A stretch of 30,367 nucleotides of DNA from a virus. This document shows positions 5 through 17,152 of this stretch, piece after piece. The position numbers and the translations under genes were made by a program. Each line of letters opens with the position of its first letter. The first letter of the stretch is position 1. The DNA lies in the IMG/VR virus record IMGVR_UViG_3300008113_000538, positions 1 through 30,367 of that record; one strand, 5' to 3'. The notes below the pieces were generated by a model. That model was given only the letters and a program-made list of their open reading frames with translations. It had not been told where the DNA came from and searched no databases.

Positions 5-78
5 GGGGGTATAACTTAATGGTAAAGTAGCGGGCTTTTAACCCGTAAATCAGAGTTCGATTCTCTGTGCCCCTACCA
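5..78 (+). tRNA. tRNA-Lys(TTT)
   Basis: Cloverleaf with 7-bp acceptor (GGGGGTA/TGCCCCT, first pair G-U), T-loop TTCGATT and anticodon loop CTTTTAA giving anticodon TTT. The discriminator A and the CCA end are encoded. First visible gene of the tRNA cluster, which probably extends upstream of the window. Confidence 0.95.
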
Positions 79-140
79 TATAAAAGCACATCGTAAACGT
101 ATCGCGTACGAAAGCTGGCCAGGCTGGTGTGCTTCTATAT
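79..140 (+). ncRNA. structured spacer between tRNA-Lys and tRNA-Met
   Basis: This 62-nt gap contains an inverted repeat, AAGCACA near 84 with TGTGCTT near 128. It encloses a TCGTA/TACGA hairpin and a GC-rich AGC-CTGG-like part. It could be a small folded RNA or a decayed tRNA; no anticodon or T-loop is visible. Function unknown. Confidence 0.35.
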
Positions 141-215
141 GGTAATGTAGCATAATGGTAGTGCAACACCTTCATACGGTGCTCAGTGAGAGTTCGACTC
201 CCTCCATTACCACCA
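141..215 (+). tRNA. tRNA with CAT anticodon (elongator Met or Ile2)
   Basis: Acceptor GGTAATG/CATTACC, T-loop TTCGACT, anticodon loop TTCATAC, encoded CCA. One mismatch at the top of the anticodon stem. It lacks the C1-A72 mismatch of initiators (the initiator is at 8187), so it is either elongator Met or an Ile tRNA whose C34 would be modified to lysidine; the sequence alone does not decide. Confidence 0.9.
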
Positions 216-221
216 TAATTT

Positions 222-296
222 GGGCTTGTAGTATAGAGGGAATTACAGCGGCTTTGCACGTCGTTAATTAGGGTTCGAGTCCCTACTGGTCCACCA
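222..296 (+). tRNA. tRNA-Ala(TGC)
   Basis: Anticodon stem GCGGC/GTCGT with loop TTTGCAC (anticodon TGC), T-stem TAGGG/CCCTA, encoded CCA. The acceptor has wobble pairs and a T-T mismatch at pair 6. A second, better paired Ala(TGC) gene lies at 7162. Confidence 0.85.
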
Positions 297-302
297 AGTT
301 TC

Positions 303-376
303 GCCCTGTTAGTTTAATGGTAGAGCACCGGTTTTGTAATCCGGGAATGGCAGTTCGATTCTGTCACGGGGCACCA
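303..376 (+). tRNA. tRNA-Thr(TGT)
   Basis: Acceptor GCCCTGT/ACGGGGC, D-loop with GG, anticodon loop TTTGTAA (TGT), T-loop TTCGATT, encoded CCA. One of three Thr tRNAs in the window. Confidence 0.93.
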
Positions 377-383
377 AGTTAAT

Positions 384-457
384 GTATCCCTAGTGTAATG
401 GCAGCATTACAGTCTCCAAAACTGTCGGTCGGGGTTCGAGTCCCTGGGGGTACGCCA
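384..457 (+). tRNA. tRNA-Trp(CCA)
   Basis: Acceptor GTATCCC/GGGGTAC, anticodon stem ACAGT/ACTGT with loop CTCCAAA (anticodon CCA), discriminator G as in bacterial Trp tRNAs, encoded CCA end. Confidence 0.95.
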
Positions 458-475
458 AGTTAGATAAGTAGTATC

Positions 476-709
476 ATGATAGATTATATTTTAACATTTT
501 TAGCAGTATTCTTTTTAGATTTAATATACACAAGGTATCTAAAATGTGTACAAGATAACAAACCGTTCATGGCTAGTTTTTGGTCAATGTTTTGTTATCT
601 TGGTGCAAGTATAGCAATCATTAATTTCACAGAAAATCATTTACTTTTAATTCCTGCTTTAATAGGTGCATTTGTTGGTACCTATGTAGGAATGAAAATC
701 AAACGTTAA
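476..709 (+). CDS. small integral membrane protein
   Basis: Unassigned 77-residue protein lying between tRNA-Trp and tRNA-Ser. Hydrophobic segments at about residues 3-20, 34-51 and 56-73 predict up to three membrane helices, and the protein ends in a basic tail (MKIKR). The Lys/Arg/Asp loop around residues 20-30 separates the first two. No catalytic motif is visible. It sits within the transcribed tRNA array, so it is probably expressed from the same transcript. Role unknown; an inner-membrane location is predicted. Confidence 0.75.
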   Translation: MIDYILTFLAVFFLDLIYTRYLKCVQDNKPFMASFWSMFCYLGASIAIINFTENHLLLIPALIGAFVGTYVGMKIKR

Positions 710-713
710 TTTT

Positions 714-805
714 GGAAGTGTGGCAGAGTCCGGTTTATTGCAACAGTCTTGAAAACTGTCGAGTCAGAGATGGCTCCGTGAGTTCGAATCTCACCGCTTC
801 CACCA
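714..805 (+). tRNA. tRNA-Ser(TGA)
   Basis: Acceptor GGAAGTG/CGCTTCC, anticodon stem ACAGT/ACTGT with loop CTTGAAA (TGA), long class II variable arm, encoded CCA. It starts four bases after the stop of the membrane-protein gene. Confidence 0.95.
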
Positions 806-810
806 ATTAT

Positions 811-885
811 ACCCATGTAGCTTAATGGCCAAGCAACCGGCTGATAACCGGTAGATCTAAGGTTCGATTCCTTTCGTGGGTACCA
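811..885 (+). tRNA. tRNA-Ile(GAT)
   Basis: Acceptor ACCCATG/CGTGGGT, anticodon stem ACCGG/CCGGT with loop CTGATAA (GAT), T-loop TTCGATT, encoded CCA. Confidence 0.95.
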
Positions 886-893
886 ATGTCTAT

Positions 894-972
894 TCCGCAG
901 AATCCAAGCAAGGTGCAGGGACCTGACTGTTAATCAGTGGTTAGCTGAGTTCGATCCTCAGATGCGGAGCCA
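894..972 (+). tRNA. tRNA-Asn(GTT)
   Basis: Acceptor TCCGCA/TGCGGA, anticodon loop CTGTTAA (GTT), T-stem CTGAG/CTCAG, discriminator G, encoded CCA. The D-arm is unusual (TCC/GGG stem with a large loop) and acceptor pair 7 is mismatched. A more canonical Asn(GTT) lies at 7817. Confidence 0.85.
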
Positions 973-980
973 AATAAGAT

Positions 981-1036
981 GGGAGTGTCGCAGATGTCCT
1001 GCGTACACTTAAACGACCAAGAGGAGCCGGCGTCCC
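981..1036 (+). ncRNA. small structured RNA between tRNA-Asn and tRNA-Cys
   Basis: A strong hairpin at 985-1008 pairs GTGT-CGCAG with CTGCG-T-ACAC around a 5-nt loop, with one bulged T. GGGA at 981 can pair with TCCC at 1033 to close the whole element. The bulged hairpin resembles one at 1705-1728 between other tRNAs. No tRNA core is present and the function is unknown. Confidence 0.5.
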
Positions 1037-1049
1037 GTAGCTAATATAT

Positions 1050-1127
1050 GCACCGGTGGCAGAGCGGCCCAATGCAACAGTCTGCAAAACTGTAAAACCA
1101 CAGGTTCAAATCCTGTCCGGTGCTCCA
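1050..1127 (+). tRNA. tRNA-Cys(GCA)
   Basis: Perfect acceptor GCACCGG/CCGGTGC, anticodon stem ACAGT/ACTGT with loop CTGCAAA (GCA), T-loop TTCAAAT, discriminator T as usual for Cys, encoded CCA. Confidence 0.95.
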
Positions 1128-1128
1128 C

Positions 1129-1428
1129 TTAAACTTCGTTGCCTAATATTATTTTTGAGTCTTCACCAACTCCAATGATACAGGCTATTTTAGGTGTCAT
1201 TTGAAGTAACGTCCAGCTTTTTGTTTTAGAATTAACAAAGAGACCAAATCTAGTTTCGTCTACAGGATTCCTTGCAGTCCAAATAGGCTTCTCATCATAA
1301 TTTTCTGTAAGACTCTTAATAAGTGTTTGTGCATCATCACAGAGAACTGGTTTGCGGCTCTCGAATGGCTGGGCGTTAGCTATAGAGCTTAATAAGCAGA
1401 ATAGGAACGCCATGGTCATTGTACGCAT
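1129..1428 (-). CDS. small secreted protein
   Basis: Unassigned 99-residue protein with a signal peptide: basic start MRTMTM, hydrophobic core AFLFCLLSS, probable cleavage after IANA (about residue 19). The mature part of about 80 residues has two cysteines (near residues 30 and 83) that could form a disulphide in the periplasm. The ATG at 1426-1428 is supported by AAGGAG six bases upstream. It is the only minus-strand gene inside the tRNA array, opposing transcription of its neighbours, and its stop lies one base from the CCA of tRNA-Cys. Function unknown. Confidence 0.8.
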   Translation of the reverse strand: MRTMTMAFLFCLLSSIANAQPFESRKPVLCDDAQTLIKSLTENYDEKPIWTARNPVDETRFGLFVNSKTKSWTLLQMTPKIACIIGVGEDSKIILGNEV

Positions 1429-1463
1429 GGCATACTCCTTAAAATAGTATTTACAAATTTTTT

Positions 1464-1539
1464 GCCGCTTTAGCTGATGTGGTCATAGCACCGGTTTGAA
1501 GCACCGAGGAACTAGGTTCGATCCCTAGGGGCGGCACCA
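1464..1539 (+). tRNA. tRNA-Phe(GAA)
   Basis: Acceptor GCCGCTT/GGGCGGC, anticodon loop TTGAAGC (GAA) on a CGGT/ACCG stem, T-stem CTAGG/CCTAG, encoded CCA. The anticodon stem has one mismatch at its base. Confidence 0.88.
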
Positions 1540-1544
1540 TACAA

Positions 1545-1621
1545 CGGTCCTTAACTCAGCGGATTAGAGTGTCAGTCTTCGAAACTGAAGGTCGGGAGTT
1601 CGAATCTCTCAGGGCCGGCCA
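1545..1621 (+). tRNA. tRNA-Arg(TCG)
   Basis: Acceptor CGGTCCT/AGGGCCG, anticodon stem TCAGT/ACTGA with loop CTTCGAA (TCG), T-loop TTCGAAT, discriminator G, encoded CCA. First of four Arg tRNAs. Confidence 0.94.
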
Positions 1622-1622
1622 A

Positions 1623-1697
1623 CTCGCTATAGTTCAATGGATAGAACGATTCTCTCCTAAAGAATAAATGTAGGTTCGATTCCTATTAGCGAGACCA
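1623..1697 (+). tRNA. tRNA-Arg(CCT)
   Basis: Perfect acceptor CTCGCTA/TAGCGAG, anticodon stem ATTCT/AGAAT with loop CTCCTAA (CCT), encoded CCA. It begins one base after the preceding tRNA ends. Confidence 0.95.
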
Positions 1698-1702
1698 AAC
1701 AG

Positions 1703-1795
1703 AATGTCGCCTTTGCTGACGGCGTACAGTAGGACAAATTGTCAGCAGTTTTACAGACCCCGCTTTGTTGGTTGTGCGTTAACAACTAACACAAA
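1703..1795 (+). ncRNA. small structured RNA between two tRNA-Arg genes
   Basis: A hairpin at 1705-1728 pairs TGT-CGCC with GGCG-T-ACA and has the same single bulged T as the hairpin at 985-1008. A second hairpin near 1766-1793 pairs GTTGT with ACAAC and TGTT with AACA. The stems of the two bulged hairpins differ in sequence but keep the pairing and the flanking TGTCGC and GCGTACA-like bases, which suggests related folded RNAs. Function unknown. Confidence 0.5.
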
Positions 1796-1800
1796 TTTAT

Positions 1801-1875
1801 GCCCCGTTCGTTCAATGGATAGGATACGATGCTACGAACGTCGGGACGGTGGTTCGATTCCATCACGGGGTGCCA
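1801..1875 (+). tRNA. tRNA-Arg(ACG)
   Basis: Acceptor GCCCCGT/ACGGGGT, anticodon stem CGATG/CGTCG with loop CTACGAA (ACG; A34 would need deamination to inosine by the host TadA), T-stem GGTGG/CCATC with a wobble, discriminator G, encoded CCA. Confidence 0.93.
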
Positions 1876-1880
1876 ACAAT

Positions 1881-1954
1881 GGTGTTGTTAGTGTAGTGGT
1901 TGCACAGCTGTCTGTGAAACAGTTAGAGAGGGTTCGATTCCCCACTTCACCCCA
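1881..1954 (+). tRNA. tRNA-His(GTG), poorly paired
   Basis: Anticodon loop CTGTGAA (GTG) on a CTGT/ACAG stem, T-loop TTCGATT, and the His-specific extra G-1 opposite discriminator C, with encoded CCA. The acceptor (GTGTTGT/ACTTCAC) has two T-T mismatches and the lower T-stem has two mismatches. It is either a functional but weak tRNA or one that is decaying. No other His tRNA is seen in the window, apart from a doubtful GTG in the tRNA-like RNA at 12880. Confidence 0.75.
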
Positions 1955-1964
1955 AAAAATTTAT

Positions 1965-2052
1965 AGTGAGTTGGGCGAGAGGCTTATGCCGTTAGTTTGC
2001 TAAACTGATGATTCGAAAGGATCCGTGGGTTCGAATCCCACACTCACTGCCA
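1965..2052 (+). tRNA. tRNA-Ser(GCT)
   Basis: Perfect acceptor AGTGAGT/ACTCACT, anticodon loop TTGCTAA (GCT), long variable arm, T-stem GTGGG/CCCAC, discriminator G, encoded CCA. Its acceptor and variable-arm end closely match the Ser(GGA) gene at 3218, which suggests a duplication. Confidence 0.94.
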
Positions 2053-2059
2053 GTTTTAT

Positions 2060-2137
2060 CTGCGTGTAATGTCAATCTGGTAGACGGCCTGGTTTGGAGC
2101 CAGGAGGCTGTAGGTTCAAATCCTACTACGCAGACCA
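2060..2137 (+). tRNA. tRNA-Pro(TGG)
   Basis: Acceptor CTGCGTG/TACGCAG, anticodon stem CCTGG/CCAGG with loop TTTGGAG (TGG), T-loop TTCAAAT, encoded CCA. One of two Pro(TGG) genes. Confidence 0.95.
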
Positions 2138-2144
2138 ATTTTGA

Positions 2145-2218
2145 TCCGGTATGGTGTAATGGTAACACAACTGACTTTGACTCAGTCGTTCTAGGTTCGA
2201 GCCCTGGTACCGGTGCCA
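2145..2218 (+). tRNA. tRNA-Gln(TTG)
   Basis: Anticodon stem ACTGA/TCAGT with loop CTTTGAC (TTG), acceptor TCCGGTA/TACCGGT whose first pair is a T-T mismatch, in keeping with the weak first pair of Gln tRNAs. Discriminator G and encoded CCA. Confidence 0.93.
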
Positions 2219-2219
2219 A

Positions 2220-2293
2220 GCTCTTGTAGTTAAGTGGTATAACGCTATCTTGGTAAGATAGAATCACAAGTTCAATTCTTGTCTAGAGCACCA
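2220..2293 (+). tRNA. tRNA-Thr(GGT)
   Basis: Acceptor GCTCTTG/CTAGAGC with one T-T mismatch, anticodon stem CTATC/GATAG with loop TTGGTAA (GGT), T-loop TTCAATT, encoded CCA. It starts one base after tRNA-Gln. Confidence 0.93.
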
Positions 2294-2294
2294 T

Positions 2295-2369
2295 ACCGCT
2301 TTCGTATAATGGAAAATACAGCACTCTTCTAAAGTGCGAATATGGGTTCGATTCCTGTAAGCGGTGCCA
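2295..2369 (+). tRNA. tRNA-Arg(TCT)
   Basis: Perfect acceptor ACCGCTT/AAGCGGT, anticodon stem GCACT/AGTGC with loop CTTCTAA (TCT), discriminator G, encoded CCA. Confidence 0.94.
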
Positions 2370-2378
2370 AAATTTTAT

Positions 2379-2460
2379 GCCCCTCTGGCCAAATTGGTAA
2401 AGGCAGCTCTCTCAAAAGGAGTGTTAGTAAGTCCCGGTTCGAGTCCGGGGAGGGGTACCA
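2379..2460 (+). tRNA. tRNA-Leu(CAA)
   Basis: Acceptor GCCCCTC/GAGGGGT, anticodon loop CTCAAAA (CAA), class II variable region, T-stem CCCGG/CCGGG, discriminator A, encoded CCA. Confidence 0.93.
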
Positions 2461-2475
2461 AATAATAAGTACAGT

Positions 2476-3216
2476 ATGGATTTAGTTACTGTTACTTGTA
2501 TTCGTGATATTAATGCAATGATAAAGCAGGCTGAAAGCATTCAGAAGTTTGTAAAGCCTTGCACACATTGGGTTATTTTAAATGATGAACATGTTGATAA
2601 AGAGTTGTGGAATAATGTCCTAACTCCTTTTTATACCAATCATAATTTAAAATTAGTAGTGCCAAAATGGAAACAATGGGATTTCAATTTTTTAACTAGA
2701 CTATTTCATGTTCCATATCATCCTATGGGTTATAAAATTCAACAGGTACATAAGTTGTTGATTTCGGAAAAATTAACAGACGACTATTTGATAACTGATT
2801 CAGAAAATATTTTTATTAAACCAACTGATATTAATGATTGGCGAGATACAATAGGAAGTGGTACTACTATAGAGTTTTCTAAATTAGGAAGTTATAAAGA
2901 GACGATTCCTCATTATGCTAAAAAGATAGGTTGTGATATTCCAAATTTATTACTTGAACCAACCACACCATTTGTTATTAATTTGGAAGTGATGAAATCA
3001 GTAGAAAAACTTAGACCGTTATTAAAATGGTTTCATAAACTTAATAAAGTTCCGCAATCTGAATTCTTTTTATACTCATTACTAGCATATAAACATGGAT
3101 TGTTTGATGGATGCACACCAAAAACTTCTAGTAGGTCTAGAATATTTTTAAAAGGTGAAGAGCATACTTTAGAAGATACTTGTTCATGGATAGTAGTTCG
3201 ATATCGTTCCCGTTAA
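2476..3216 (+). CDS. DUF6492-like putative glycosyltransferase
   Basis: A 246-residue protein whose N-terminus (MDLVTVTCIRDINAMIKQAE) resembles the opening of DUF6492/glycosyltransferase-like proteins: a short beta strand, then a helix carrying charged residues. A second conserved-looking block, LITDSENIFIKPTD near residues 105-118, has the acidic centre expected of a GT-A-type nucleotide-sugar site. Such enzymes in phages may glycosylate DNA, virion proteins or host surface sugars; the substrate here is unknown. The gene fills the space between tRNA-Leu and tRNA-Ser and its stop lies one base before the tRNA. The family call is from motif memory and needs a profile search. Confidence 0.55.
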   Translation: MDLVTVTCIRDINAMIKQAESIQKFVKPCTHWVILNDEHVDKELWNNVLTPFYTNHNLKLVVPKWKQWDFNFLTRLFHVPYHPMGYKIQQVHKLLISEKLTDDYLITDSENIFIKPTDINDWRDTIGSGTTIEFSKLGSYKETIPHYAKKIGCDIPNLLLEPTTPFVINLEVMKSVEKLRPLLKWFHKLNKVPQSEFFLYSLLAYKHGLFDGCTPKTSSRSRIFLKGEEHTLEDTCSWIVVRYRSR

Positions 3217-3217
3217 T

Positions 3218-3305
3218 AGTGAGTTGGCAGAGTGGCTTATTGCACCACCTTGGAAAGGTGACGACCCGAAAGGATCCGTGAGTTCGAATCTCACACTCAC
3301 TGCCA
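3218..3305 (+). tRNA. tRNA-Ser(GGA)
   Basis: Perfect acceptor AGTGAGT/ACTCACT, CACC/GGTG anticodon stem with loop TTGGAAA (GGA), long variable arm, discriminator G, encoded CCA. Shares the acceptor and the sequence around the variable arm with Ser(GCT) at 1965. Confidence 0.94.
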
Positions 3306-3326
3306 TTTGTATTTTTTAAATACAGT

Positions 3327-3857
3327 ATGAAAAAAGAATTGTTAATTGGTTGCGGTTCTCAAAGAGATAAACGAATCGCATTGGACAACGACCATACATG
3401 GTCAAATCTAACAACATTAGACATTTATGACCATCATAATCCAGATGTTGTTTGGGACTTGTGTAAATTTCCTTTGCCATTTGAAGATAATACGTTTGAT
3501 GAAATTCATGCCTATGAAGTTTTAGAGCATACTGGGCAACAAGGCGATTATAAATTTTTCTTTGCACAGTTTACAGAATTTTGGCGTATATTAAAACCAA
3601 ATGGATATATGTTTGCTACATGCCCAGCCTGGAATAGTATTTGGGCCTGGGGTGATCCTAGTCATACTAGAGTATTACAACATGTGCAACTAAATTTTTT
3701 AAGCCAAAAAGAATACACAAATCAAATTGGCAAAACACCAATGTCTGATTTTAGGTATCTATATAAAGCAGACTTTGAAAAAATTTATGATAAAACAACA
3801 GATGAAACATTTGCATTTGTTATACAAGCCATCAAACCTTCTAGAATTTCAATATAA
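3327..3857 (+). CDS. class I SAM-dependent methyltransferase
   Basis: A 176-residue Rossmann-type methyltransferase. The SAM-binding motif I is LLIGCGSQ (residues 5-12), an acidic residue follows in LDIYDHH, motif PLPFEDNTFDEIHAYEVLEH (about 49-68) is the motif II to III region seen in methyltransferase-11-like proteins, and ILKPNGYMFATCPAW (about 90-104) is the post-motif strand. This is somewhat short for the family but looks complete. The substrate is not evident; small phage methyltransferases act on nucleic acid, protein or sugar. It ends just before the promoter of the large RNA. Confidence 0.85.
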   Translation: MKKELLIGCGSQRDKRIALDNDHTWSNLTTLDIYDHHNPDVVWDLCKFPLPFEDNTFDEIHAYEVLEHTGQQGDYKFFFAQFTEFWRILKPNGYMFATCPAWNSIWAWGDPSHTRVLQHVQLNFLSQKEYTNQIGKTPMSDFRYLYKADFEKIYDKTTDETFAFVIQAIKPSRISI

Positions 3858-3859
3858 AC

Positions 3860-3883
3860 ATTTGTTGTAAAAATACAACAAAT
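3860..3883. repeat. inverted repeat TTGTTGTAAAAATACAACA, copy 1
   Basis: Perfect 10-bp inverted repeat, ATTTGTTGTA and TACAACAAAT around AAAA. The inner 19 bases recur exactly at 10905-10923, and both copies sit just upstream of a consensus sigma70 promoter and just after a CDS stop. It may be a repressor or activator operator, or a weak terminator; the lack of a T-run and the conservation of the loop favour a protein-binding site. Confidence 0.7.
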
Positions 3884-3898
3884 ATCTTAAAAAAATCG

Positions 3899-3927
3899 TT
3901 GACAGTCAATAACTTAGAAGCTATAAT
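3899..3927 (+). promoter_or_regulatory. consensus sigma70 promoter of the large RNA
   Basis: TTGACA at 3899-3904 and TATAAT at 3922-3927 with a 17-bp spacer, a perfect match in both boxes. The expected start is near 3934. No protein gene follows, so it drives the large structured RNA and the tRNAs beyond it. Confidence 0.93.
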
Positions 3928-3933
3928 AGATGT

Positions 3934-5093
3934 ATAAGTTGTTAAAGACGACAACAGAAATTGTTCATTAAAAATTAAAATTGTATAAAGCAAAGCCTTT
4001 ATACACATGCACACAGAGGCGAACTAGACGCCTTTGGGAGGGACCCAGCCCTGCACCGTATGGAGCAGATAAGGTGGCCAGTTTCGGAGCTGGCGTGTGT
4101 GCAGTTGTATAAAGGTTTACGGGCAGTTTAATGTCCTGTAGGCGGCTTGCCGTTTACGAAGAATAACTGTGGTGACACAGCCAAAGATGGAATGCCTACA
4201 TACCATCGCTAGAAATAGTTCGCTTAAACAAGCCTGCTCACTACCGCGAGGTAGCGTTCACTGATCAGACCGGTGGATGTAACAATGACGCAAGTGTTAG
4301 GGAAAGAATGTGTATCGACTGGCCCGCAAGGGAACCAGGGTGCATGAAAAGTAACAGGTGGTGCTGACTTCCTAACAAAACCAACTTGTTAATTGGTATG
4401 AGAAAGGGTAGCATATTTGTCCGAGGTGTCGCAACTAAGGGCTTGTATGCAATGTTAACGGTTAGTGGGGGCTGTCGGCAACGGCGGGGTCAACACATGT
4501 CGTGAAACATCACTGAGTAGTCCGCGAGACAAAAGGTACATGGTGAGTTGTATTATGCAGTCCAAAAGATTGTGTAGCAACAGTGGCAGCTCATCGTAGT
4601 AGGTTTGATATAGCGTAATGGTAACGCAATTGCCTCTTAAGCAATGGACTGTTGGTTCGATCCCAACTATCGATTATAAAAATGCAAAGACTGCCACGGT
4701 CATGTGTGAAAAGTATCTAATACTTGAGCCGCAAGGTAATCAAGTTTAGTGAAGCTCGCAAGGTGACACTAATTTGTGGAGGGGGGTTCGTAACGGTTTA
4801 GCGACTGTGAATGGCTCGCAAGGTCAACGGAATGGAATCCGCAGAATAGCACATGATGACAAGTCTACTGCCTGACTTTAAAAACGGCGATACTGGTAGC
4901 AGACCGAGATACCGCAAGGGTTTCGGTGGATGTCGAGAGAAGGTATGCTCGCAAGGTGTACTATAATGCTCGAGGTGTTACTGGTTAAGATGTAATCTCA
5001 GTCTTAACACTTTTCTAAAACACATTAGACGAATGGATACAATCTGTAGGCATACAGAAGTAACAGAGCGGTTAGTGTGTTTTAGAAAAGTAT
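3934..5093 (+). ncRNA. large ornate structured RNA, GOLLD-class candidate
   Basis: A stretch of about 1.16 kb without a credible ORF and richer in G and C than the flanking genes. It begins at a perfect promoter and ends nine bases before tRNA-Asp. A 5' domain is closed by CCTTTATACA (3996) with TGTATAAAGG (4106), continued by TGCACAC with GTGTGCA. The 3' domain ends in a 16-bp perfect helix, 5009-5024 with 5076-5091. Many hairpins carry GCAA-type GNRA loops (CGCAAG occurs repeatedly between 4310 and 4960). A tRNA is embedded at 4604. Size, GNRA-rich helices, phage and tRNA context and the embedded tRNA are the published traits of GOLLD RNAs; ROOL or a new class is the alternative. The 3' end is probably made by RNase P cleavage at tRNA-Asp. 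Confidence 0.75.
4604..4675 (+). tRNA. tRNA-Lys(CTT)-like, embedded in the large RNA
   Basis: D-arm GCG/CGC, anticodon stem ATTGC/GCAAT with loop CTCTTAA (anticodon CTT), T-stem GTTGG/CCAAC with loop TTCGATC. The acceptor (TTTGATA/TATCGAT) pairs at six of seven positions. Unlike the other tRNAs here it has no encoded CCA. It lies in the middle of the large RNA, so it is either excised from it or kept as a structural module. Confidence 0.8.
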
Positions 5094-5100
5094 CTATATT

Positions 5101-5179
5101 GGCCCGTTAGCTCAGTCTGGCCTAAGGCGCCGCCCTGTCACGGCGGAGATCACCGGTTCGAATCCGGTACGGGTCGCCA
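5101..5179 (+). tRNA. tRNA-Asp(GTC)
   Basis: Acceptor GGCCCGT/ACGGGTC, anticodon stem CGCC/GGCG with loop CTGTCAC (GTC), T-stem CCGGT/ATCCGG-type pairing, discriminator G, encoded CCA. It directly follows the large RNA and probably defines its 3' end. Confidence 0.95.
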
Positions 5180-5182
5180 AGT

Positions 5183-5398
5183 TTTGTTGTAGTGTCAGCA
5201 AGAGAATGTCACGCTATCTAGGTAAGTTCGAACTACCAAAATAGTAAAAGGGGACGGGTTCAACTCCCGGGCGATCGGAAGATCGCCGCAGTATGGTTGC
5301 TAACTGGACTAGTATCCCAAGTGACTTACCGAGTCCTGCCCGGGCTAGTTAATCCAGGTGAATGGTGTCGATAACGATGGCGGCACTACTGCAACAAA
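5183..5398 (+). ncRNA. structured RNA between tRNA-Asp and tRNA-Glu
   Basis: About 216 nt closed by a long-range helix: TTTGTTG and TAGTG (5183-5194) pair with CACTA and CAACAAA (5384-5398) around a 3-nt bulge. Inside are a perfect hairpin GGCGATC-GGAA-GATCGCC (5270-5287) and a helix GGTAAGT (5221) with ACTTACC (5324). There is no ORF of note. The closed fold points to an independent RNA released when the flanking tRNAs are processed. Function unknown. Confidence 0.65.
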
Positions 5399-5407
5399 TT
5401 CATTTAT

Positions 5408-5483
5408 GCACCGTTCGTCTATCGGTCTAGGACACCGCCCTTTCACGGCGGGAAGAGGAGTTCGATTCTCCTACGGTGTACCA
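5408..5483 (+). tRNA. tRNA-Glu(TTC)
   Basis: Acceptor GCACCGT/ACGGTGT, anticodon stem CCGCC/GGCGG with loop CTTTCAC (TTC), T-stem AGGAG/CTCCT, encoded CCA. Confidence 0.95.
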
Positions 5484-5681
5484 GTTCCGGTTACTACTTT
5501 CCTGAAAGTAGCGTGTGGCGACGATAATGATCCCGGTGGCAGAAAACCGTTAGCGAGGCAACCCCTCAGACACTGCTAGGCAGAATCCTAACTGCACACA
5601 GACACGAGAATAAACGGGATGGACAGAGTAACAGCTCAGTCTAGGGGCTCGACTGGAAAACGAGTAGCCTGACACTAATTT
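5484..5681 (+). ncRNA. structured RNA between tRNA-Glu and tRNA-Tyr
   Basis: About 198 nt with a perfect 8-bp hairpin CTACTTTC/GAAAGTAG (5494-5511), a longer-range helix ATCCCG (5530) with CGGGAT (5615), a TAGG/CCTA hairpin near 5570-5590, and a 3' hairpin GGCTCG/CGAG-T-AGCC near 5645-5669. No protein-coding signal is seen. It probably forms a separate folded RNA; function unknown. Confidence 0.55.
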
Positions 5682-5766
5682 GGAGATCGAGAAGCATTGG
5701 TGACTTCAGCAGACTGTAAATCTGTCGCCTCCGGCATACGGGGTTCGAATCCCTGGATCTCCACCA
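5682..5766 (+). tRNA. tRNA-Tyr(GTA)
   Basis: Perfect acceptor GGAGATC/GATCTCC, CAGA/TCTG anticodon stem with loop CTGTAAA (GTA), class II variable arm, T-stem GGGGT/ATCCC-type pairing, encoded CCA. Confidence 0.95.
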
Positions 5767-5785
5767 AATTGTTTTAACAAGGTGC

Positions 5786-5814
5786 TTGACATCGTTAAAT
5801 ACTCTTGCTAAAAT
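5786..5814 (+). promoter_or_regulatory. sigma70 promoter upstream of tRNA-Leu
   Basis: TTGACA at 5786-5791 and TAAAAT at 5809-5814 with a 17-bp spacer; the start would be near 5821, leaving a short leader before tRNA-Leu. It gives the second half of the tRNA array its own supply of transcripts. Confidence 0.85.
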
Positions 5815-5848
5815 AAATGAAGTTAGCAAATGTTCTTTAAAAGTTTTT

Positions 5849-5931
5849 GCCCCGATGGTGGAATTGGTAGACACGCTGGTCTTAGAAGCCAGTGCTTAGG
5901 CGTGAGAGTTCGAGTCTCTCTTGGGGCACCA
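5849..5931 (+). tRNA. tRNA-Leu(TAG)
   Basis: Acceptor GCCCCGA/TTGGGGC, CTGG/CCAG anticodon stem with loop CTTAGAA (TAG), class II variable arm, T-stem GAGAG/CTCTC, encoded CCA. Confidence 0.95.
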
Positions 5932-6072
5932 TTAATTAGTAGCATAGCTCGTCGGGCTACGTACAAGCCTAACCTTGTCCAAAGCGGGAAGCCTATGATA
6001 CTAGTAACTAGACGGCATAGCGCAGTCTAACAATAGGTAGCAAAGAGGATAGTAAACTGTGCTACTAATTAA
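5932..6072 (+). ncRNA. structured RNA closed by a perfect 13-bp helix
   Basis: TTAATTAGTAGCA (5932-5944) is exactly complementary to TGCTACTAATTAA (6060-6072), and pairing can extend two bases into the CCA of tRNA-Leu. The 115 nt inside fold into successive short hairpins: TAGC/GCTA (from 5945), ACAAG/CTTGT (from 5973), CTAGT/ACTAG (6001-6011) and AGAC/GTCT (from about 6010, overlapping the last). This is a multi-branched RNA of about 141 nt between tRNA-Leu and tRNA-Ser, with no credible ORF. Function unknown. Confidence 0.7.
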
Positions 6073-6079
6073 TGGTTAC

Positions 6080-6174
6080 GGAGCGTTGGCCGAGTTGGTC
6101 GAAGGCACCTTCCTGCTAAGAAGGCATACGGGCAAAAACCTGTATCATTAGTTCGAATCTAATACGCTCCGCCA
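6080..6174 (+). tRNA. tRNA-Ser(GCT), second copy
   Basis: Perfect acceptor GGAGCGT/ACGCTCC, anticodon stem CCTTC/GAAGG with loop CTGCTAA (GCT), long variable arm, discriminator G, encoded CCA. Same anticodon as the gene at 1965 but quite different in sequence, so the two probably have separate origins. Confidence 0.95.
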
Positions 6175-6195
6175 AGTTTTTTAAATGAGGATATT

Positions 6196-6321
6196 ATGGC
6201 AAAAAGTCAAAATTCAACACACAAAAGAGTTCACAAAAGTACTTGCCAAAATGGTAGCAAGACATCTACTGTTAATAAGAGTAGAAAAGGTCATAAGAGA
6301 TATAGAGGGCAAGGACGCTAA
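6196..6321 (+). CDS. very basic 41-residue protein
   Basis: ATG at 6196 preceded by GAGG at the usual spacing. The 41-residue product is rich in Lys, Arg, His, Ser and Thr with almost no acidic residues, starts MAKSQNSTHKRVHKS and ends HKRYRGQGR. Such composition is typical of small nucleic-acid- or ribosome-binding proteins, but no named family is recognised. It lies between tRNA-Ser and tRNA-Thr and is probably translated from the tRNA transcript before or after processing. Confidence 0.75.
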   Translation: MAKSQNSTHKRVHKSTCQNGSKTSTVNKSRKGHKRYRGQGR

Positions 6322-6330
6322 TAAGTCAAT

Positions 6331-6405
6331 GCCGGATTAGCTCAGGGGTAGAGCAACCGCCTTGTAAGCGGTAGGTCGTCAGTTCAAATCCGACATCCGG
6401 CACCA
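6331..6405 (+). tRNA. tRNA-Thr(TGT), second copy
   Basis: Perfect acceptor GCCGGAT/ATCCGGC, anticodon stem ACCGC/GCGGT with loop CTTGTAA (TGT), T-loop TTCAAAT, encoded CCA. Better paired than the Thr(TGT) gene at 303. Confidence 0.96.
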
Positions 6406-6422
6406 ACATTGAGGTAATAGTA

Positions 6423-6683
6423 ATGGCACGTAAAAAGAAATCAGAAGAAGAAACAATTAAGGAAATTGCAAAGTTAGTTGCAGAAGTTACCTTGCAAGAT
6501 ACTGATCCTATAGTTATTAAAGTTGTCAAAGGAAGTCACTTGACAGTGACACATTATAGTGATGGTAAAACAAAACTTGAATGGGACGACGATGCACTAC
6601 TTCGTGATGTAAAAGATGCTATTGCTAGTGTTCAAGTAACTGAACAAACAGTTAAAAAAACACGAAAGAAAAAAGTTAGTTAA
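6423..6683 (+). CDS. small charged hypothetical protein
   Basis: An 86-residue protein of unknown function. It has a Lys/Glu-rich amphipathic start (MARKKKSEEETIKEIAKLV), a central predicted beta region with VIKVVKGSHLTVTHYSDGK (about 37-55), and a basic Lys/Arg tail. The ATG follows GAGGT with good spacing. No catalytic motif is seen; a nucleic-acid-associated role is possible but unproven. Confidence 0.75.
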   Translation: MARKKKSEEETIKEIAKLVAEVTLQDTDPIVIKVVKGSHLTVTHYSDGKTKLEWDDDALLRDVKDAIASVQVTEQTVKKTRKKKVS

Positions 6684-6689
6684 GATTTT

Positions 6690-6766
6690 CGGAGTGTAGC
6701 GCAGTCTGGTAGCGCACCTGGTTTGGGACCAGGGGGTCCAAGGTTCGAATCCTTGTACTCCGACCA
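6690..6766 (+). tRNA. tRNA-Pro(TGG), second copy
   Basis: Acceptor CGGAGTG/TACTCCG, anticodon stem CCTGG/CCAGG with loop TTTGGGA (TGG), T-stem CAAGG/CCTTG, encoded CCA. Confidence 0.95.
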
Positions 6767-6772
6767 AGACGT

Positions 6773-6955
6773 TCTGTCTAATCAACAGATACTGTGACCC
6801 GCAGGATGAGAAGTACAGTGATATGTACGGGTGGTAGTCTTTAAACCGAAAGGCCGCTGGCAGTGCGAGAACGGAACCCGTCGTGGAGAGGGTGGAGGCC
6901 GTGCGTGATGGTATGTAGTGTAAAGACTACTACTTGATGCGGTATAATTACCTCC
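6773..6955 (+). ncRNA. structured RNA between tRNA-Pro and a small CDS
   Basis: About 180 nt with TCTGT/ACAGA (6773-6789) and ACTGT/ACAGT (6791-6819) hairpins and a long-range 10-bp perfect helix GTAGTCTTTA (6834-6843) with TAAAGACTAC (6921-6930). The helix encloses a CC-GAAA-GG hairpin, a CGG/CCG hairpin and a GGCC/GGCC helix. A GGTA-TAAT-TACC hairpin follows at about 6941-6952. No ORF fits. The fold resembles the other inter-tRNA RNAs in style; function unknown. Confidence 0.6.
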
Positions 6956-6990
6956 GGGGTTCGCAGAGCATTTTGAATTAAGGATATTAC

Positions 6991-7143
6991 ATGCCAATGT
7001 ATGAAACAACTGTTAGAACACCACAAGGTGAAGAAAAGAAACGTATTTACGCTAAAGACGTAAAAGAAGCAAAACAGCTTTTCGAACAACTATATGGTGG
7101 TCCTAGAGCAGTTCCATATATACCTCATGTGGTACCAAGTTAA
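6991..7143 (+). CDS. 50-residue hypothetical protein
   Basis: ATG at 6991 with AAGGA upstream at 6980. The product (starting MPMYETTVRTPQGEEKKRIY) has a short beta hairpin followed by an acidic/basic amphipathic helix (KDVKEAKQLFEQLYGG), an arrangement common in small DNA- or protein-binding phage products. A Pro/Val tail ends it. No family recognised. Confidence 0.7.
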   Translation: MPMYETTVRTPQGEEKKRIYAKDVKEAKQLFEQLYGGPRAVPYIPHVVPS

Positions 7144-7161
7144 TCGCGTGTGAGACGATGT

Positions 7162-7237
7162 GGGGGTGTAGCTCAGTTGGGAGAGCGGCGGCTTTGCAAG
7201 CCGTAGGTCGCAGGTTCGATCCCTGTCACCTCCACCA
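7162..7237 (+). tRNA. tRNA-Ala(TGC), second copy
   Basis: Acceptor GGGGGTG/CACCTCC, GGC/GCC anticodon stem with loop TTTGCAA (TGC), T-stem GCAGG/CCTGT-type pairing, encoded CCA. Close to the bacterial Ala(TGC) consensus. Confidence 0.97.
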
Positions 7238-7254
7238 AATTTAAAGAGGATAAT

Positions 7255-7398
7255 ATGTCAGAACAAGTTCAAGAAAATACATGTGGGTGTGGTCGTAGTC
7301 CAACTGGTCAATGTTGTGGATGGCACAGCTTGACAGAAGAGGATTTTCAAGTTAAACTAAAAGAATATTTTGAATCACAAGACAATAAGTCTGAATAA
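7255..7398 (+). CDS. 47-residue Cys-rich protein with CDGSH-like motif
   Basis: ATG at 7255 after AAAGAGGATA. The N-terminal half contains CGCGRSPTGQCCGWH (residues 10-24), that is C-x-C-x2-S-x4-C-x-G-x-H. CDGSH iron-sulphur domains use C-x-C-x2-S-x3-P-x-C-D-G-x-H, so this is one residue shorter and lacks the Pro and Asp. The three outer Cys and the His could bind Fe-S or zinc. The C-terminal half is an acidic amphipathic helix. The motif is seen; metal binding is inference. Confidence 0.7.
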   Translation: MSEQVQENTCGCGRSPTGQCCGWHSLTEEDFQVKLKEYFESQDNKSE

Positions 7399-7403
7399 AA
7401 TAT

Positions 7404-7477
7404 GCGGGGTTCGTATAGTGGTAATACCTCAGCCTTCCAAGCTGATGCGGAGAGTTCGATTCTCTTACCCCGCTCCA
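7404..7477 (+). tRNA. tRNA-Gly(TCC)
   Basis: Perfect acceptor GCGGGGT/ACCCCGC, CAGC/GCTG anticodon stem with loop CTTCCAA (TCC), T-loop TTCGATT, discriminator T, encoded CCA. Confidence 0.96.
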
Positions 7478-7484
7478 AATAACC

Positions 7485-7809
7485 CGTTTACACTTGCCCG
7501 TTAATCAAGTGCGTAATTACAGTAACGAGAACTGTACGGTGCATTGGATCCACCGCAAGGCCCTCTTTAGGGGCGACTTGAAAAATCACAAAGGCGGGGA
7601 CATTGCCCGTCTAAATGGAAAAGAATGTGGACAGGGTAACCACCCAGTTTAGGGCACTTGTGGTGAGAGTAGCTAGACACTTTATAGATGCTCTTTGAGT
7701 AGCTACAGTGGAACACCGAAATACTTGTCAATGTCGACCATGTACAAGGACCGGCCATGAAGAGTAGGGCTACCGAGAATTCAAGCGTCACAGAGAGCAC
7801 CTATAAAGT
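7485..7809 (+). ncRNA. two-domain structured RNA of about 325 nt
   Basis: The gap between tRNA-Gly and tRNA-Asn has no plausible gene but strong folding potential. The 5' part has hairpins CACTTG/CAAGTG (from about 7491), CAGT/ACTG, GCCC/GGGC and CGGG/CCCG. The 3' domain is closed by ACTTTATAG (7679-7687) with CTATAAAGT (7801-7809), continued by GCTCT (7690) with AGAGC (7794), and contains a CTTGT/ACAAG hairpin. I looked for RNase P RNA signatures and did not find them. Unassigned. Confidence 0.6.
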
Positions 7810-7816
7810 AATTTAT

Positions 7817-7891
7817 TCCCTGGTAGCTCAGCGGTAGAGCAGTTGGCTGTTAACCAATTGGTCGTAGGTTCGATCCCTGCCCGGGGAGCCA
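7817..7891 (+). tRNA. tRNA-Asn(GTT), second copy
   Basis: Acceptor TCCCTGG/CCGGGGA, anticodon stem TTGG/CCAA with loop CTGTTAA (GTT), canonical D-arm AGCTCAGCGGTAGAGC, discriminator G, encoded CCA. Confidence 0.97.
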
Positions 7892-7908
7892 TTTAAAAAG
7901 GAAAATAT

Positions 7909-8181
7909 ATGCAAGTAAGAGCACGACACATTTTAGTAGAGAACTTAGAATTGGCTAATAAAATTATTAGTCAGTTAGATACAGGCGAAAGTTTTGCACA
8001 ATTGGCAAAAGCACATAGTAAATGTGGTAGCGCACACAGAGGCGGAGATTTAGGAACGTTTGGTCCTGGTCAGATGGTTAAGCCCTTTGAAGAAGCAACT
8101 TTTGCTCTAGCAGTAAATGAAACTGGCAAACAGCCAATACAAACACAATTTGGATATCATATTATCCAACGTACAGAATAA
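7909..8181 (+). CDS. ppiC: parvulin-type peptidyl-prolyl isomerase, PpiC-like
   Basis: A 90-residue single-domain rotamase with the parvulin signature: ARHILVEN at the N-terminus, GGDLGTFGPGQMVKPFEEATF in the middle (about 45-65) and the C-terminal TQFGYHIIQRTE. Length and sequence match stand-alone cytoplasmic PpiC, which isomerises peptide bonds before proline in folding proteins. No signal peptide. The gene sits alone between two tRNAs with AAGGAAAATAT before the ATG. Probably acquired from a host; it may help fold abundant phage proteins. Confidence 0.93.
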   Translation: MQVRARHILVENLELANKIISQLDTGESFAQLAKAHSKCGSAHRGGDLGTFGPGQMVKPFEEATFALAVNETGKQPIQTQFGYHIIQRTE

Positions 8182-8186
8182 ACTAA

Positions 8187-8260
8187 CGCGGGTTAGAGAA
8201 ACGGTAACTCACGAGTCTCATAAGCTCGAGATCCTGGTTCGATTCCGGGACCCGCAACCA
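8187..8260 (+). tRNA. initiator tRNA-fMet(CAT)
   Basis: Anticodon loop CTCATAA and, decisively, a C1-A72 mismatch at the acceptor end (CGCGGGT/ACCCGCA), which marks bacterial initiator tRNAs and permits formylation. The sequence CGCGGGT at the 5' end and CCCGCAACCA at the 3' end match bacterial initiators. The three G-C pairs usual next to the anticodon loop are not kept (stem CGAGT/GCTCG). Confidence 0.92.
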
Positions 8261-8277
8261 TTTTAGAAGAGGCAACT

Positions 8278-8691
8278 ATGTTAGAATGTTTAATTATTGG
8301 CGATAGTATAGCAGTAGGAACATCAATGGCACGACCAGAATGCGTAAGTTATTCTAAAGGTGGCTGGAACAGTTGGCAATGGAATAAAGATTATTTGAGT
8401 AAAGCATCAAGTCACTCTGCTAAAACTATTATCATTAGTTTAGGAGCCAATGACCATAAAGGTGTTAAGACAGAAGCAGAACTTCGTAAAATGCGTGAAT
8501 CCATTAAAGGTGACCGTGTATTTTGGATTGACCCTGGTCAAGAAAGAAAACCCATTCCACATGATGCTATTGTTCGAATTGCAAAAGAATATGGCGATGT
8601 GATTTTACCTAGACCAAAAGATCACATGAGTGCCGATGGTGTCCATCCTACCGGAAAAGGTTATAGAGTTCTTGCATCTCAAACAAAATAA
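8278..8691 (+). CDS. SGNH/GDSL-type hydrolase
   Basis: A 137-residue compact SGNH fold: block I IIGDSIAVG with nucleophile Ser10, a GGW turn near 28-30, block III SLGANDH with Asn58, and block V ADGVHPTGKGY with Asp120 and His123 as the catalytic pair. It is an esterase or lipase acting on acyl or acetyl esters. In phages such domains occur in host-surface or peptidoglycan-modifying proteins, but this one is stand-alone with no signal peptide. Start ATG follows GAGGCAACT. Confidence 0.88.
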   Translation: MLECLIIGDSIAVGTSMARPECVSYSKGGWNSWQWNKDYLSKASSHSAKTIIISLGANDHKGVKTEAELRKMRESIKGDRVFWIDPGQERKPIPHDAIVRIAKEYGDVILPRPKDHMSADGVHPTGKGYRVLASQTK

Positions 8692-8714
8692 TAGTATAAT
8701 AAAAAATATTAAGC

Positions 8715-8789
8715 GCATCGTTAGCTCAGTGGTAGAGCAGGGCCCTTACAAGGCCAAGGTCGGGAGTTCAACCCTCTCACGATGCACCA
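8715..8789 (+). tRNA. tRNA-Val(TAC)
   Basis: Perfect acceptor GCATCGT/ACGATGC, GGCC/GGCC anticodon stem with loop CTTACAA (TAC), T-loop TTCAACC, encoded CCA. Confidence 0.96.
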
Positions 8790-8816
8790 CTTAACACACA
8801 TAGAAAGGTCATCATA

Positions 8817-9089
8817 ATGGACATGGATCAATCCGCAATTTTTTTGGCGGGAAGTATTTTAACAATTTTGGGTTTTGTTGTAATTGCTATAGGTGTTATT
8901 GTAATTAATAATATAGCATCAAAATATTGGAAACCTGTTACTATTTTTACTAGGGAAAGTTTCAGTCTTTTTGGAAATCCTAGCAATCATACACCAATCA
9001 ATCCTCTTAATGATGAAGAGTACGAAGAATTGGTGAAACATTTAGAAACCATTCGTTCTGCAAAAGAACAAGAAAAGAAAAAGAAATGA
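8817..9089 (+). CDS. small single-pass membrane protein
   Basis: A 90-residue protein with one strong hydrophobic segment (about residues 7-31, IFLAGSILTILGFVVIAIGV) and a cytoplasmic-type tail rich in Lys and Glu ending EQEKKKK. It opens a four-gene run of overlapping genes (8817-10309): its TGA overlaps the ATG of the phosphoribosyltransferase. No family recognised. Confidence 0.8.
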   Translation: MDMDQSAIFLAGSILTILGFVVIAIGVIVINNIASKYWKPVTIFTRESFSLFGNPSNHTPINPLNDEEYEELVKHLETIRSAKEQEKKKK

Positions 9090-9553
9090 ACAAAGACATG
9101 TATCCACTCCCTGCCCGAGCAATTGGGTATGATGAAATGATGCGATACTGTGATAATCTAATGGTCAAAGTTGCAGCCTGGAAGCCAGATGAAATCATTG
9201 GAGTTGCTAGGAGTGGTATGCCTTTTGCAACGTTTATTGCACAGAAACTTAATTTGGATTTAGGTTACTACAATCCAAAATTTGAACATTTCCAGGTAGC
9301 CAATCCAAACTCAAAGCGTATAATGATCATTGATGAGAACTTTGTCAGTGGTGGAACCCAAAAACAAATTCATCAGTTTATGGAAAAAATCAAATACGAG
9401 CATGAGTACATGGTAGGTTGCGTAATGTTAGATTTGTTTTGCCCAGACAAAAATTGTCTATATGGAAAATTGTTAGACTTTTGGGCAGACGACATGGCTT
9501 GTTTTTTTAAACCTATTAATATTGAGGAACGTGGTGTCAGATTCCGTGATTAA
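9086..9553 (+). CDS. phosphoribosyltransferase-like protein
   Basis: A 155-residue type I PRTase fold. EIIGVARSGMPFATFIA (about 36-52) is the first strand-helix with the diphosphate-binding loop, and RIMIIDENFVSGGTQKQ (78-94) is the PRPP loop, in which the usual two acidic residues appear as D and E. The C-terminus has two Cys. Such proteins transfer phosphoribosyl to bases or regulate nucleotide pools. Substrate unknown. Overlaps its upstream neighbour by ATGA and a HAD-like gene downstream. Confidence 0.85.
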   Translation: MNKDMYPLPARAIGYDEMMRYCDNLMVKVAAWKPDEIIGVARSGMPFATFIAQKLNLDLGYYNPKFEHFQVANPNSKRIMIIDENFVSGGTQKQIHQFMEKIKYEHEYMVGCVMLDLFCPDKNCLYGKLLDFWADDMACFFKPINIEERGVRFRD

Positions 9554-9956
9554 AATTGCATTTGATTTGGATGGTGTCTTAGTGCCAGATTGTGATCAAA
9601 TTCCATTTATTAAAAGTTTAGATGACTTCTATGGTCTAACAATGTATATGAAACCGTTGTTTAACCCATCAGGTCCATATGCTATTATCACCGCAAGACC
9701 TGCTAGTCACAGAAGTACCACTTGGACTTGGTGTAATAGACACTTAATTGAACTTCCTAATAGATTGTTTCATGAATGTTTAGATGAAACTCCAGGTGCC
9801 TATAAAGAAAAAATTTTAAACGATAATCCAAATATTCAAACTTACGTGGAGTCTGATGAAGGAATCGTTAAATATCTTAGAAATAATGTTAAGACAGGAT
9901 GTGAAATAATATTTTTTGATGAATATATTTCAAGTCTTTTTAGAAAGGAAAAATGA
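9534..9956 (+). CDS. HAD-like phosphatase or nucleotidase
   Basis: HAD motif I is IKIAFDLDGVLV with the nucleophile and acid Asp pair, motif II is AIITARP, and an acidic FFDEY lies near the C-terminus. About 140 residues, like small 5'-deoxyribonucleotidase-type or PNKP-type phage proteins. I take GTG at 9534 as start because GAGGA lies five bases upstream; the frame is also open from a TTG at 9522 and GTG codons follow. It overlaps the PRTase gene, suggesting translational coupling and a joint role in nucleotide salvage. Confidence 0.78.
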   Translation: MSDSVIKIAFDLDGVLVPDCDQIPFIKSLDDFYGLTMYMKPLFNPSGPYAIITARPASHRSTTWTWCNRHLIELPNRLFHECLDETPGAYKEKILNDNPNIQTYVESDEGIVKYLRNNVKTGCEIIFFDEYISSLFRKEK

Positions 9957-10309
9957 CGCTAGATCAAATTCTGTATGCTAATTTAGCATTTTTTATTCTA
10001 ATTGGAATAGTATATTCTCATTCTAAATGGGAAAAAATTAAATCATGTTACGGAATGTGGTTTACTCGAGAATACTGGACTGATTATAATATTGTAGAAT
10101 TTGCCAGCTGGGCCGCTAAAGCAGTAATTATTGTTCCTAGTTTGATTTTTGGAATACAAGTTTGGTGGTTATTTTTCTTAACATTGTTTACTAGTCTTAC
10201 ACTAATATGGGCTAGTAACAAAAAACTACTTCCAACTCTAGTAGGATTTAATACTATATGGGTATGGATCAGTTGTATGGTATTAGCACAACATTTAGTG
10301 CGGGTATGA
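9953..10309 (+). CDS. membrane protein, three to four TM helices
   Basis: A 118-residue hydrophobic protein with segments at about 6-22, 46-64, 66-84 and 93-113. Aromatic residues, especially Trp, are abundant. It overlaps the HAD gene by ATGA. Its last ten bases, including the TGA, lie inside the tRNA-Gly gene, so processing of that tRNA would remove the end of the message. Function unknown. Confidence 0.75.
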   Translation: MTLDQILYANLAFFILIGIVYSHSKWEKIKSCYGMWFTREYWTDYNIVEFASWAAKAVIIVPSLIFGIQVWWLFFLTLFTSLTLIWASNKKLLPTLVGFNTIWVWISCMVLAQHLVRV

Positions 10310-16811: not shown

Positions 16812-16824
16812 TAAGGAGATTAGT

Positions 16825-16899: not shown

Positions 16900-16900
16900 T

Positions 16901-17150: not shown

Positions 17151-17152
17151 GA

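What the first reader, a model, noticed from the sequence alone, without database searches (positions are those of the whole stretch)
3934..5093. Large RNA with its own perfect promoter and a tRNA embedded in it
A stretch of about 1.16 kb lacks a credible ORF but has a perfect sigma70 promoter at its head, a 16-bp perfect helix at its end, a 17-bp helix near its start and many GNRA hairpins. A tRNA-Lys(CTT) without CCA sits inside. Published GOLLD RNAs share this size, style, phage and tRNA context and embedded tRNAs. It is either a GOLLD-class RNA or a new relative.
Basis: partly seen in the sequence, partly recalled or inferred. Interest (0 to 1): 0.85.

Follow-up and report, generated by a model that had tools for sequence, protein, structure and literature searches.

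The report
Phage GOLLD RNA with embedded tRNA mimic
This stretch of an uncultured phage encodes GOLLD, a known giant cage-forming RNA, and comparison with about 80 related copies shows that the 'tRNA' inside it keeps a tRNA's L-shape but has lost the end that carries an amino acid, so it is probably a built-in tRNA look-alike rather than a working tRNA.

Summary
Rfam's GOLLD model (RF02032) matches 4540-5004 over its full length (206.7 bits, E 3e-57). In 73 aligned homologs the conserved RNA runs from about 4108 to 5022, closed by a covarying hairpin at 5009-5091. The leader 3934-4107 is not conserved. A perfect sigma70-type promoter lies at 3899-3927; strong promoter matches recur upstream of homologs (49 of 89 at 11/12 or better, against 1.3% of shuffles).

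The 'tRNA-Lys(CTT)' needs reinterpretation. Sixty-five distinct elements from the same linker keep the cloverleaf, with strong covariation, and L-shape tertiary contacts. All lack CCA, whereas 97% of 1,243 free tRNAs in the same loci have it. Acceptor pairs 1-3 are mostly lost (43/60/40% against 93/99/100%); pairs 4-7 are kept. 'Asn' elements carry G73 in 1 of 35 cases, against 42 of 42 free tRNA-Asn. A second GOLLD clade (17 elements) shows the same 4-bp stump with drifting anticodons. It is therefore most likely a tRNA-like domain retained in the cage-facing linker, not a released tRNA. Its function is inferred only.

GOLLD and pseudo-tRNAs in GOLLD were already known. The population-scale anatomy is the added value.

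The parts
3899..3927 (+). sigma70-type promoter TTGACA-17-TATAAT; predicted start of transcription about 3934
   Evidence: promoter matches of 11/12 or better within 400 nt upstream in 49 of 89 homologs vs 1.3% of shuffles
3934..4107 (+). transcribed leader with an interrupted hairpin domain (arms 3993-4015 / 4096-4118); not conserved in most homologs
4108..4539 (+). GOLLD 5' domain (432 nt; not covered by the Rfam model), conserved and covarying in 73 homologs
4540..5004 (+). GOLLD 3' domain, full-length match to RF02032
4599..4605 (+). near-invariant 5' linker flank GTAGGTT; overwrites acceptor positions 1-2 of the tRNA-like element
4604..4675 (+). tRNA-like domain in the linker (ARAGORN: tRNA-Lys CTT); cloverleaf and L-shape core kept, acceptor stem cut to 4 secure pairs (4-7), no CCA
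4679..4691 (+). near-invariant 3' linker flank AAAANGCAAAGAC leading into the pseudoknot/3' core
   Evidence: columns 4679-4691
5009..5091 (+). terminal hairpin closing the RNA; arms 5009-5027 / 5073-5091, variable loop

Best explanation
The locus is a phage GOLLD RNA. It is transcribed from its own strong promoter inside a tRNA array, with a variable leader, a 5' domain (about 4108-4539), a 3' domain (4540-5004) and a terminal hairpin (to 5091). Between the first helix of the 3' domain and the following pseudoknot, its linker carries a tRNA-fold domain that stays part of the RNA. The tRNA core and anticodon arm are under selection. The parts needed for processing and charging (outer acceptor pairs, discriminator, CCA) have been replaced by conserved GOLLD linker sequence, which should make it a poor substrate for RNase P, CCA addition and aminoacyl-tRNA synthetases. 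If this GOLLD assembles like the published env-38 14-mer, where the linker points into the lumen, each cage would hold up to 14 tRNA-shaped domains as internal bait or docking sites for a tRNA-binding partner. Shown here: GOLLD membership, the conserved anatomy, and loss of charging features with retention of the fold. Inferred from a homolog's structure: the cage and interior placement. Inferred without direct evidence: the bait/docking function (about 0.35).
For: GOLLD: (206.7 bits, E 2.8e-57, full model). Extent: 73-sequence alignment, identity to the window rising from about 0.3 to 0.75 at about 4108 and falling after about 5022, with covarying pairs throughout. tRNA fold selected: 41 diverse elements have 91.2% of cloverleaf cells paired vs 65.9% in shuffles; covariation score 0.713 vs 0.230; slid controls at most 0.160. 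L-shape core: 13-46 C-G 46 / T-A 24 with 2 exceptions; 15:48 A-T 51, T-A 7, T-G 7; 8:14, 18:55, 19:56 kept. Charging features lost: 65 distinct elements, 0 with CCA; acceptor pairs 1/2/3 in 43/60/40%, pairs 4-7 in 95-98%. Same parser on 1,243 free tRNAs of the same loci: pairs 1-3 93/99/99.7%, CCA 1,212, G73 in 42/42 tRNA-Asn vs 1/35 in embedded GUU elements. A second clade agrees: 17 elements, pairs 4-7 100%, pair 2:71 6%, no CCA. Flanks GTAGGTT and AAAANGC near-invariant. Cage and interior linker: Kretsch et al. 2025, PMC12286853. A pseudo-tRNA inside mycobacterial GOLLD with no separate expression detected: PMC6582537.
Against: No transcript, assembly or binding data exist for this phage. 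Lys-type elements (CUU/UUU) keep A73 in 13 of 19 and the anticodon loop is well kept in clade 1, as a working tRNA would. A short acceptor stem does not by itself exclude unusual processing. Many GOLLDs have an AU-rich linker and no tRNA (about 40 RF02032 matches span only 393-416 nt), so the domain is not needed for GOLLD as such. The elements are related by descent, so counts are not independent events.
Confidence: 0.8

Rival explanations
1. The embedded element is a working phage tRNA-Lys(CUU) gene that happens to sit in the GOLLD linker and is cut out of the transcript, given CCA and used in translation.
For: ARAGORN and Rfam tRNA models score it as a tRNA (62.5 bits); anticodon CUU; the loop U33-NUU-A37-A38 is kept in clade 1; bacteria can add CCA enzymatically (general knowledge).
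Against: In this window 33 of 34 tRNAs encode CCA and only this one does not. Outer acceptor pairs, discriminator and CCA are lost across 65 + 17 elements. Position 73 is T in the window, whereas 60 of 62 free tRNA-Lys(CUU/UUU) have A73. Clade 2 has 8-nt anticodon loops and UGA/GCU anticodons without the long arm of tRNA-Ser. Excision would cut GOLLD in two.
Confidence: 0.12
2. The tRNA is a recent, neutral insertion (pseudogene) decaying in a linker that tolerates any sequence.
For: The linker is variable and disordered in the env-38 structure (PMC12286853); tRNA genes are abundant around GOLLD; a mycobacterial case was called a pseudo-tRNA (PMC6582537).
Against: Stems covary strongly and the tertiary core is kept in dozens of diverged elements. 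Elements match free tRNAs of the same loci at no more than about 84% over part of their length, so they are old. The flanks are near-invariant.
Confidence: 0.05
3. The tRNA fold is only a compact, stable spacer that fills or orders the cage interior or helps folding, with no partner.
For: Fold kept while anticodons drift in clade 2; other GOLLDs use AU-rich linkers of about 50 nt.
Against: In clade 1 positions 33 and 35-38 of the anticodon loop are nearly fixed (0.1-0.5 bits) while stems reach 1.8 bits, and no covarying partner for the anticodon is found inside the RNA. A pure spacer does not need a fixed anticodon loop.
Confidence: 0.3
4. The tRNA-like domains are decoys for host enzymes that act on the anticodon loop of tRNA-Lys/Asn (anticodon nucleases such as PrrC or RloC, PARIS-type effectors).
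For: The anticodon arm is kept while the chargeable end is lost; NUU anticodons in 55 of 63 seven-base loops of clade 1; phages are known to counter tRNA-Lys cleavage (PrrC/RloC, PMC2610378, abstract seen; otherwise general knowledge).
Against: No anticodon nuclease or binding tested; clade 2 anticodons vary; a closed cage would hide the bait unless it opens.
Confidence: 0.15

Closest known systems
GOLLD RNA (Rfam RF02032; Weinberg et al. 2009; cryo-EM Kretsch et al. 2025)
   Same: Full-length match to the 3' domain model; separate 5' domain of similar length (432 vs 420 nt); phage and tRNA-array context; tRNA in the linker, a location already reported
   Different: 72-nt tRNA-like linker instead of the disordered linker of env-38 (nucleotides 497-538); additional non-conserved leader
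Pseudo-tRNA inside mycobacterial GOLLD (PMC6582537)
   Same: A tRNA-shaped element inside GOLLD, judged a pseudo-tRNA, not seen as a separate transcript
   Different: Here quantified in 82 distinct elements of two clades from viral metagenome contigs, with the fold shown to be maintained by covariation
ROOL RNA (nanocage, octamer)
   Same: Works alike in outline: large phage RNA near tRNA islands, cage, interior linker
   Different: Unrelated sequence and structure; no ROOL match here
tRNA-like domains of other RNAs (tmRNA, Y-RNA/YrlA tRNA-like module)
   Same: tRNA fold built into a larger RNA
   Different: tmRNA keeps a chargeable acceptor end, this element does not (comparison from general knowledge)

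Membership tests
GOLLD (RF02032) | Match to the curated covariance model above the gathering score | tested here: met
   206.7 bits vs 150, full model 1-416, E 2.8e-57
GOLLD (RF02032) | Conserved 3' region plus a less conserved, structured 5' region, total over 800 nt | tested here: met
   Conserved from about 4108 to 5022 in 73 homologs with covarying helices in both halves
GOLLD (RF02032) | Phage or prophage and tRNA-array context | tested here: met
   Virus record; 34 ARAGORN tRNAs from 5 to 10373 around it
GOLLD (RF02032) | Assembly into a 14-mer nanocage | not testable with these tools
   Known for env-38 only (PMC12286853)
GOLLD (RF02032) | Expression rising during phage lysis | not testable with these tools
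   No RNA data; only promoter evidence
Functional tRNA-Lys(CUU) | Cloverleaf and tertiary core | tested here: met
Functional tRNA-Lys(CUU) | 7-bp acceptor stem | tested here: not met
   1:72 is T-T in the window; pairs 1-3 in 43/60/40% of 65 elements vs 93-100% of free tRNAs
Functional tRNA-Lys(CUU) | A73 discriminator and CCA end (encoded CCA is the rule in these phages) | tested here: not met
   Window ends T + ATA; 0 of 65 and 0 of 17 elements with CCA vs 1,212 of 1,243 free tRNAs
ROOL | Match to the ROOL model | tested here: not met
   No ROOL match even at E up to 1

The most novel reading that the evidence does not exclude
A phage-encoded RNA nanocage carries, inside its lumen, up to 14 non-chargeable tRNA mimics with a selected anticodon loop (mostly NUU), used as bait or cargo docking sites for host tRNA-binding machinery such as anticodon nucleases or ribosomes.
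Probability: 0.2. Interest if true: 0.85.

Novelty: new member of a known kind. Interest (0 to 1): 0.5.

Why it matters
GOLLD's function is unknown. Showing that its embedded tRNAs keep shape but not chargeability, across two clades, turns 'sometimes there is a tRNA in the linker' into a testable statement: the cage displays tRNA mimics. It also warns that annotation pipelines count these as phage tRNA genes, although they very probably do not decode.

Tried and rejected
Protein-coding explanation: no ORF of 60 aa or more on either strand across 3858-5357. Relatives in isolate phages: blastn of the 3' domain found none, and the listed best matches of the longer query were all to the neighbouring tRNA-Asp. 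Anticodon pairing with another part of GOLLD: no covarying partner found for positions 34-36, although an invariant partner cannot be excluded. A general motif search mixed true GOLLDs with chance matches; these were separated with the covariance model. Parser bias against outer acceptor pairs was checked by running the same parser on free tRNAs. The original GOLLD paper (PMC4140389) and the mycobacterial survey (PMC7549688) are not held, so what they say about embedded tRNAs was taken from citing papers.

Full report
Observation. A 12/12 sigma70-type promoter lies at 3899-3927, and such perfect sites are rare by chance (3 found, 0.11 expected). No ORF of 60 aa or more lies between 3858 and 5357 on either strand. 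A hairpin with 16 perfect consecutive pairs closes the region (5009-5027 / 5073-5091), and a less perfect one sits near the start (3993-4015 / 4096-4118). ARAGORN finds tRNA-Lys(CTT) at 4603-4676. It is the only one of 34 tRNAs in the window without an encoded CCA.

Identity. Rfam's GOLLD model matches 4540-5004 from its first to its last position (206.7 bits, gathering 150, E 2.8e-57). The window is a virus record. The Rfam model covers only the 3' domain. To find the true extent I collected relatives from IMG/VR through the neighbouring methyltransferase-like gene and through motif scans. I confirmed the relatives with the covariance model. In an alignment of 73 distinct homologs, identity to the window rises at about 4108 and falls after about 5022, with the terminal hairpin arms also kept. 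Mutual information shows covarying, base-pairing columns in the 5' domain (for example 4167-4171:4176-4180, 4241-4245:4250-4254, 4452-4458:4503-4510), in the 3' domain and in the terminal hairpin. The 5' domain is 432 nt, close to the 420 nt of env-38, whose cryo-EM structure is a 14-mer cage (PMC12286853). The leader 3934-4107 is not conserved, but a strong promoter upstream is: 49 of 89 homologs have a match of 11/12 or better within 400 nt, against 1.3% of shuffled sequences.

The embedded tRNA. In the GOLLD subfamily found by the motif nearly every linker holds a tRNA-shaped element, whereas about 40 other GOLLD matches have short linkers (spans 393-416 nt against 460-471 nt). I parsed 65 distinct elements. 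None ends in CCA. Acceptor pairs 1, 2 and 3 form in 43, 60 and 40%, and pairs 4 to 7 in 95-98%. With the same parser, 1,243 free tRNAs of the same loci form pairs 1-3 in 93-99.7% and 1,212 have CCA. Elements with an Asn anticodon have G73 in 1 of 35 cases, against 42 of 42 free tRNA-Asn. In the window, position 73 is T and pair 1:72 is T-T. A second clade (17 distinct elements) has pairs 4-7 in all, pair 2:71 in 6%, no CCA, and anticodon loops that drift in sequence and length. The lost outer acceptor is overwritten by near-invariant GOLLD flanks, GTAGGTT on the 5' side and AAAANGC on the 3' side.

The tRNA fold itself is kept. On 41 diverse elements the cloverleaf has 91.2% of cells paired and a covariation score of 0.713, against 0.230 in shuffles and at most 0.160 in slid controls. 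Contacts that make the L-shape are kept or covary: 13 with 46 (C-G 46, T-A 24, two exceptions), 15:48 (A-T 51, T-A 7, T-G 7), 8:14, 18:55 and 19:56. In clade 1 the anticodon loop is nearly fixed at 33 and 35-38 and free at 34, giving NUU in 55 of 63 seven-base loops. No covarying partner for the anticodon was found within the RNA. The elements match free tRNAs of the same loci at no more than about 84% over part of their length, so they are old parts of GOLLD.

Mechanism. Most likely the element is not cut out and charged. It stays in the linker, which in the env-38 structure points into the cage, as a tRNA mimic. Erasing the acceptor end would also protect GOLLD from being cut in two by RNase P and the 3' processing enzymes (inference from how those enzymes recognise tRNAs). 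What the mimic binds is open: a partner with affinity for the tRNA elbow and anticodon arm, an anticodon nuclease, or ribosomes (Kretsch et al. cite pull-downs of ribosomes with GOLLD), or no partner at all (spacer).

Known and new. GOLLD, its cage, its tRNA-array context and tRNAs in its linker are published; one mycobacterial case was already called a pseudo-tRNA (PMC6582537). The population-scale demonstration that fold and charging ability have been uncoupled in two clades was not found in the papers I could read. The founding paper was not held, so this claim is limited.

Noticed in passing
window 5180-5407: Spacer between tRNA-Asp and tRNA-Glu is a conserved structured RNA: 24 distinct homologs, 36 of 61 consensus pairs with changes on both sides; no Rfam match at E up to 1. 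It contains a T-arm-like GGGTTCAACTCCC.
   Followed up: partly
window 6767-6985: Spacer after tRNA-Pro is another conserved structured RNA: 12 distinct sequences, 20 of 57 pairs with changes on both sides; no Rfam match.
   Followed up: partly
window 5484-5681, 5932-6079 and 7478-7816: Three more inter-tRNA spacers look like conserved structured RNAs (4-5 distinct sequences each, covarying pairs well above slid controls); none is in Rfam. The array may hold a set of at least five undescribed RNAs beside GOLLD.
   Followed up: partly
window 3981-3990 and 4105-4115: TTGTATAAAG(G) occurs twice in the leader, and both copies can pair with CCTTTATACA at 3996-4005: two mutually exclusive helices at the 5' edge of GOLLD.
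   Followed up: no
window 16694-17168: Phage-encoded permuted (two-piece type) tmRNA with predicted tag ANAKAITTEAEVMTFTWDLPANESRYALAA.
   Followed up: no
window 5-10373: Array of 34 predicted tRNAs (33 apart from the GOLLD element), many with small genes or structured RNAs between them.
   Followed up: no
window 12845-12873 and 13953-13981: Two further perfect TTGACA-17-TATAAT promoters on the + strand.
   Followed up: no
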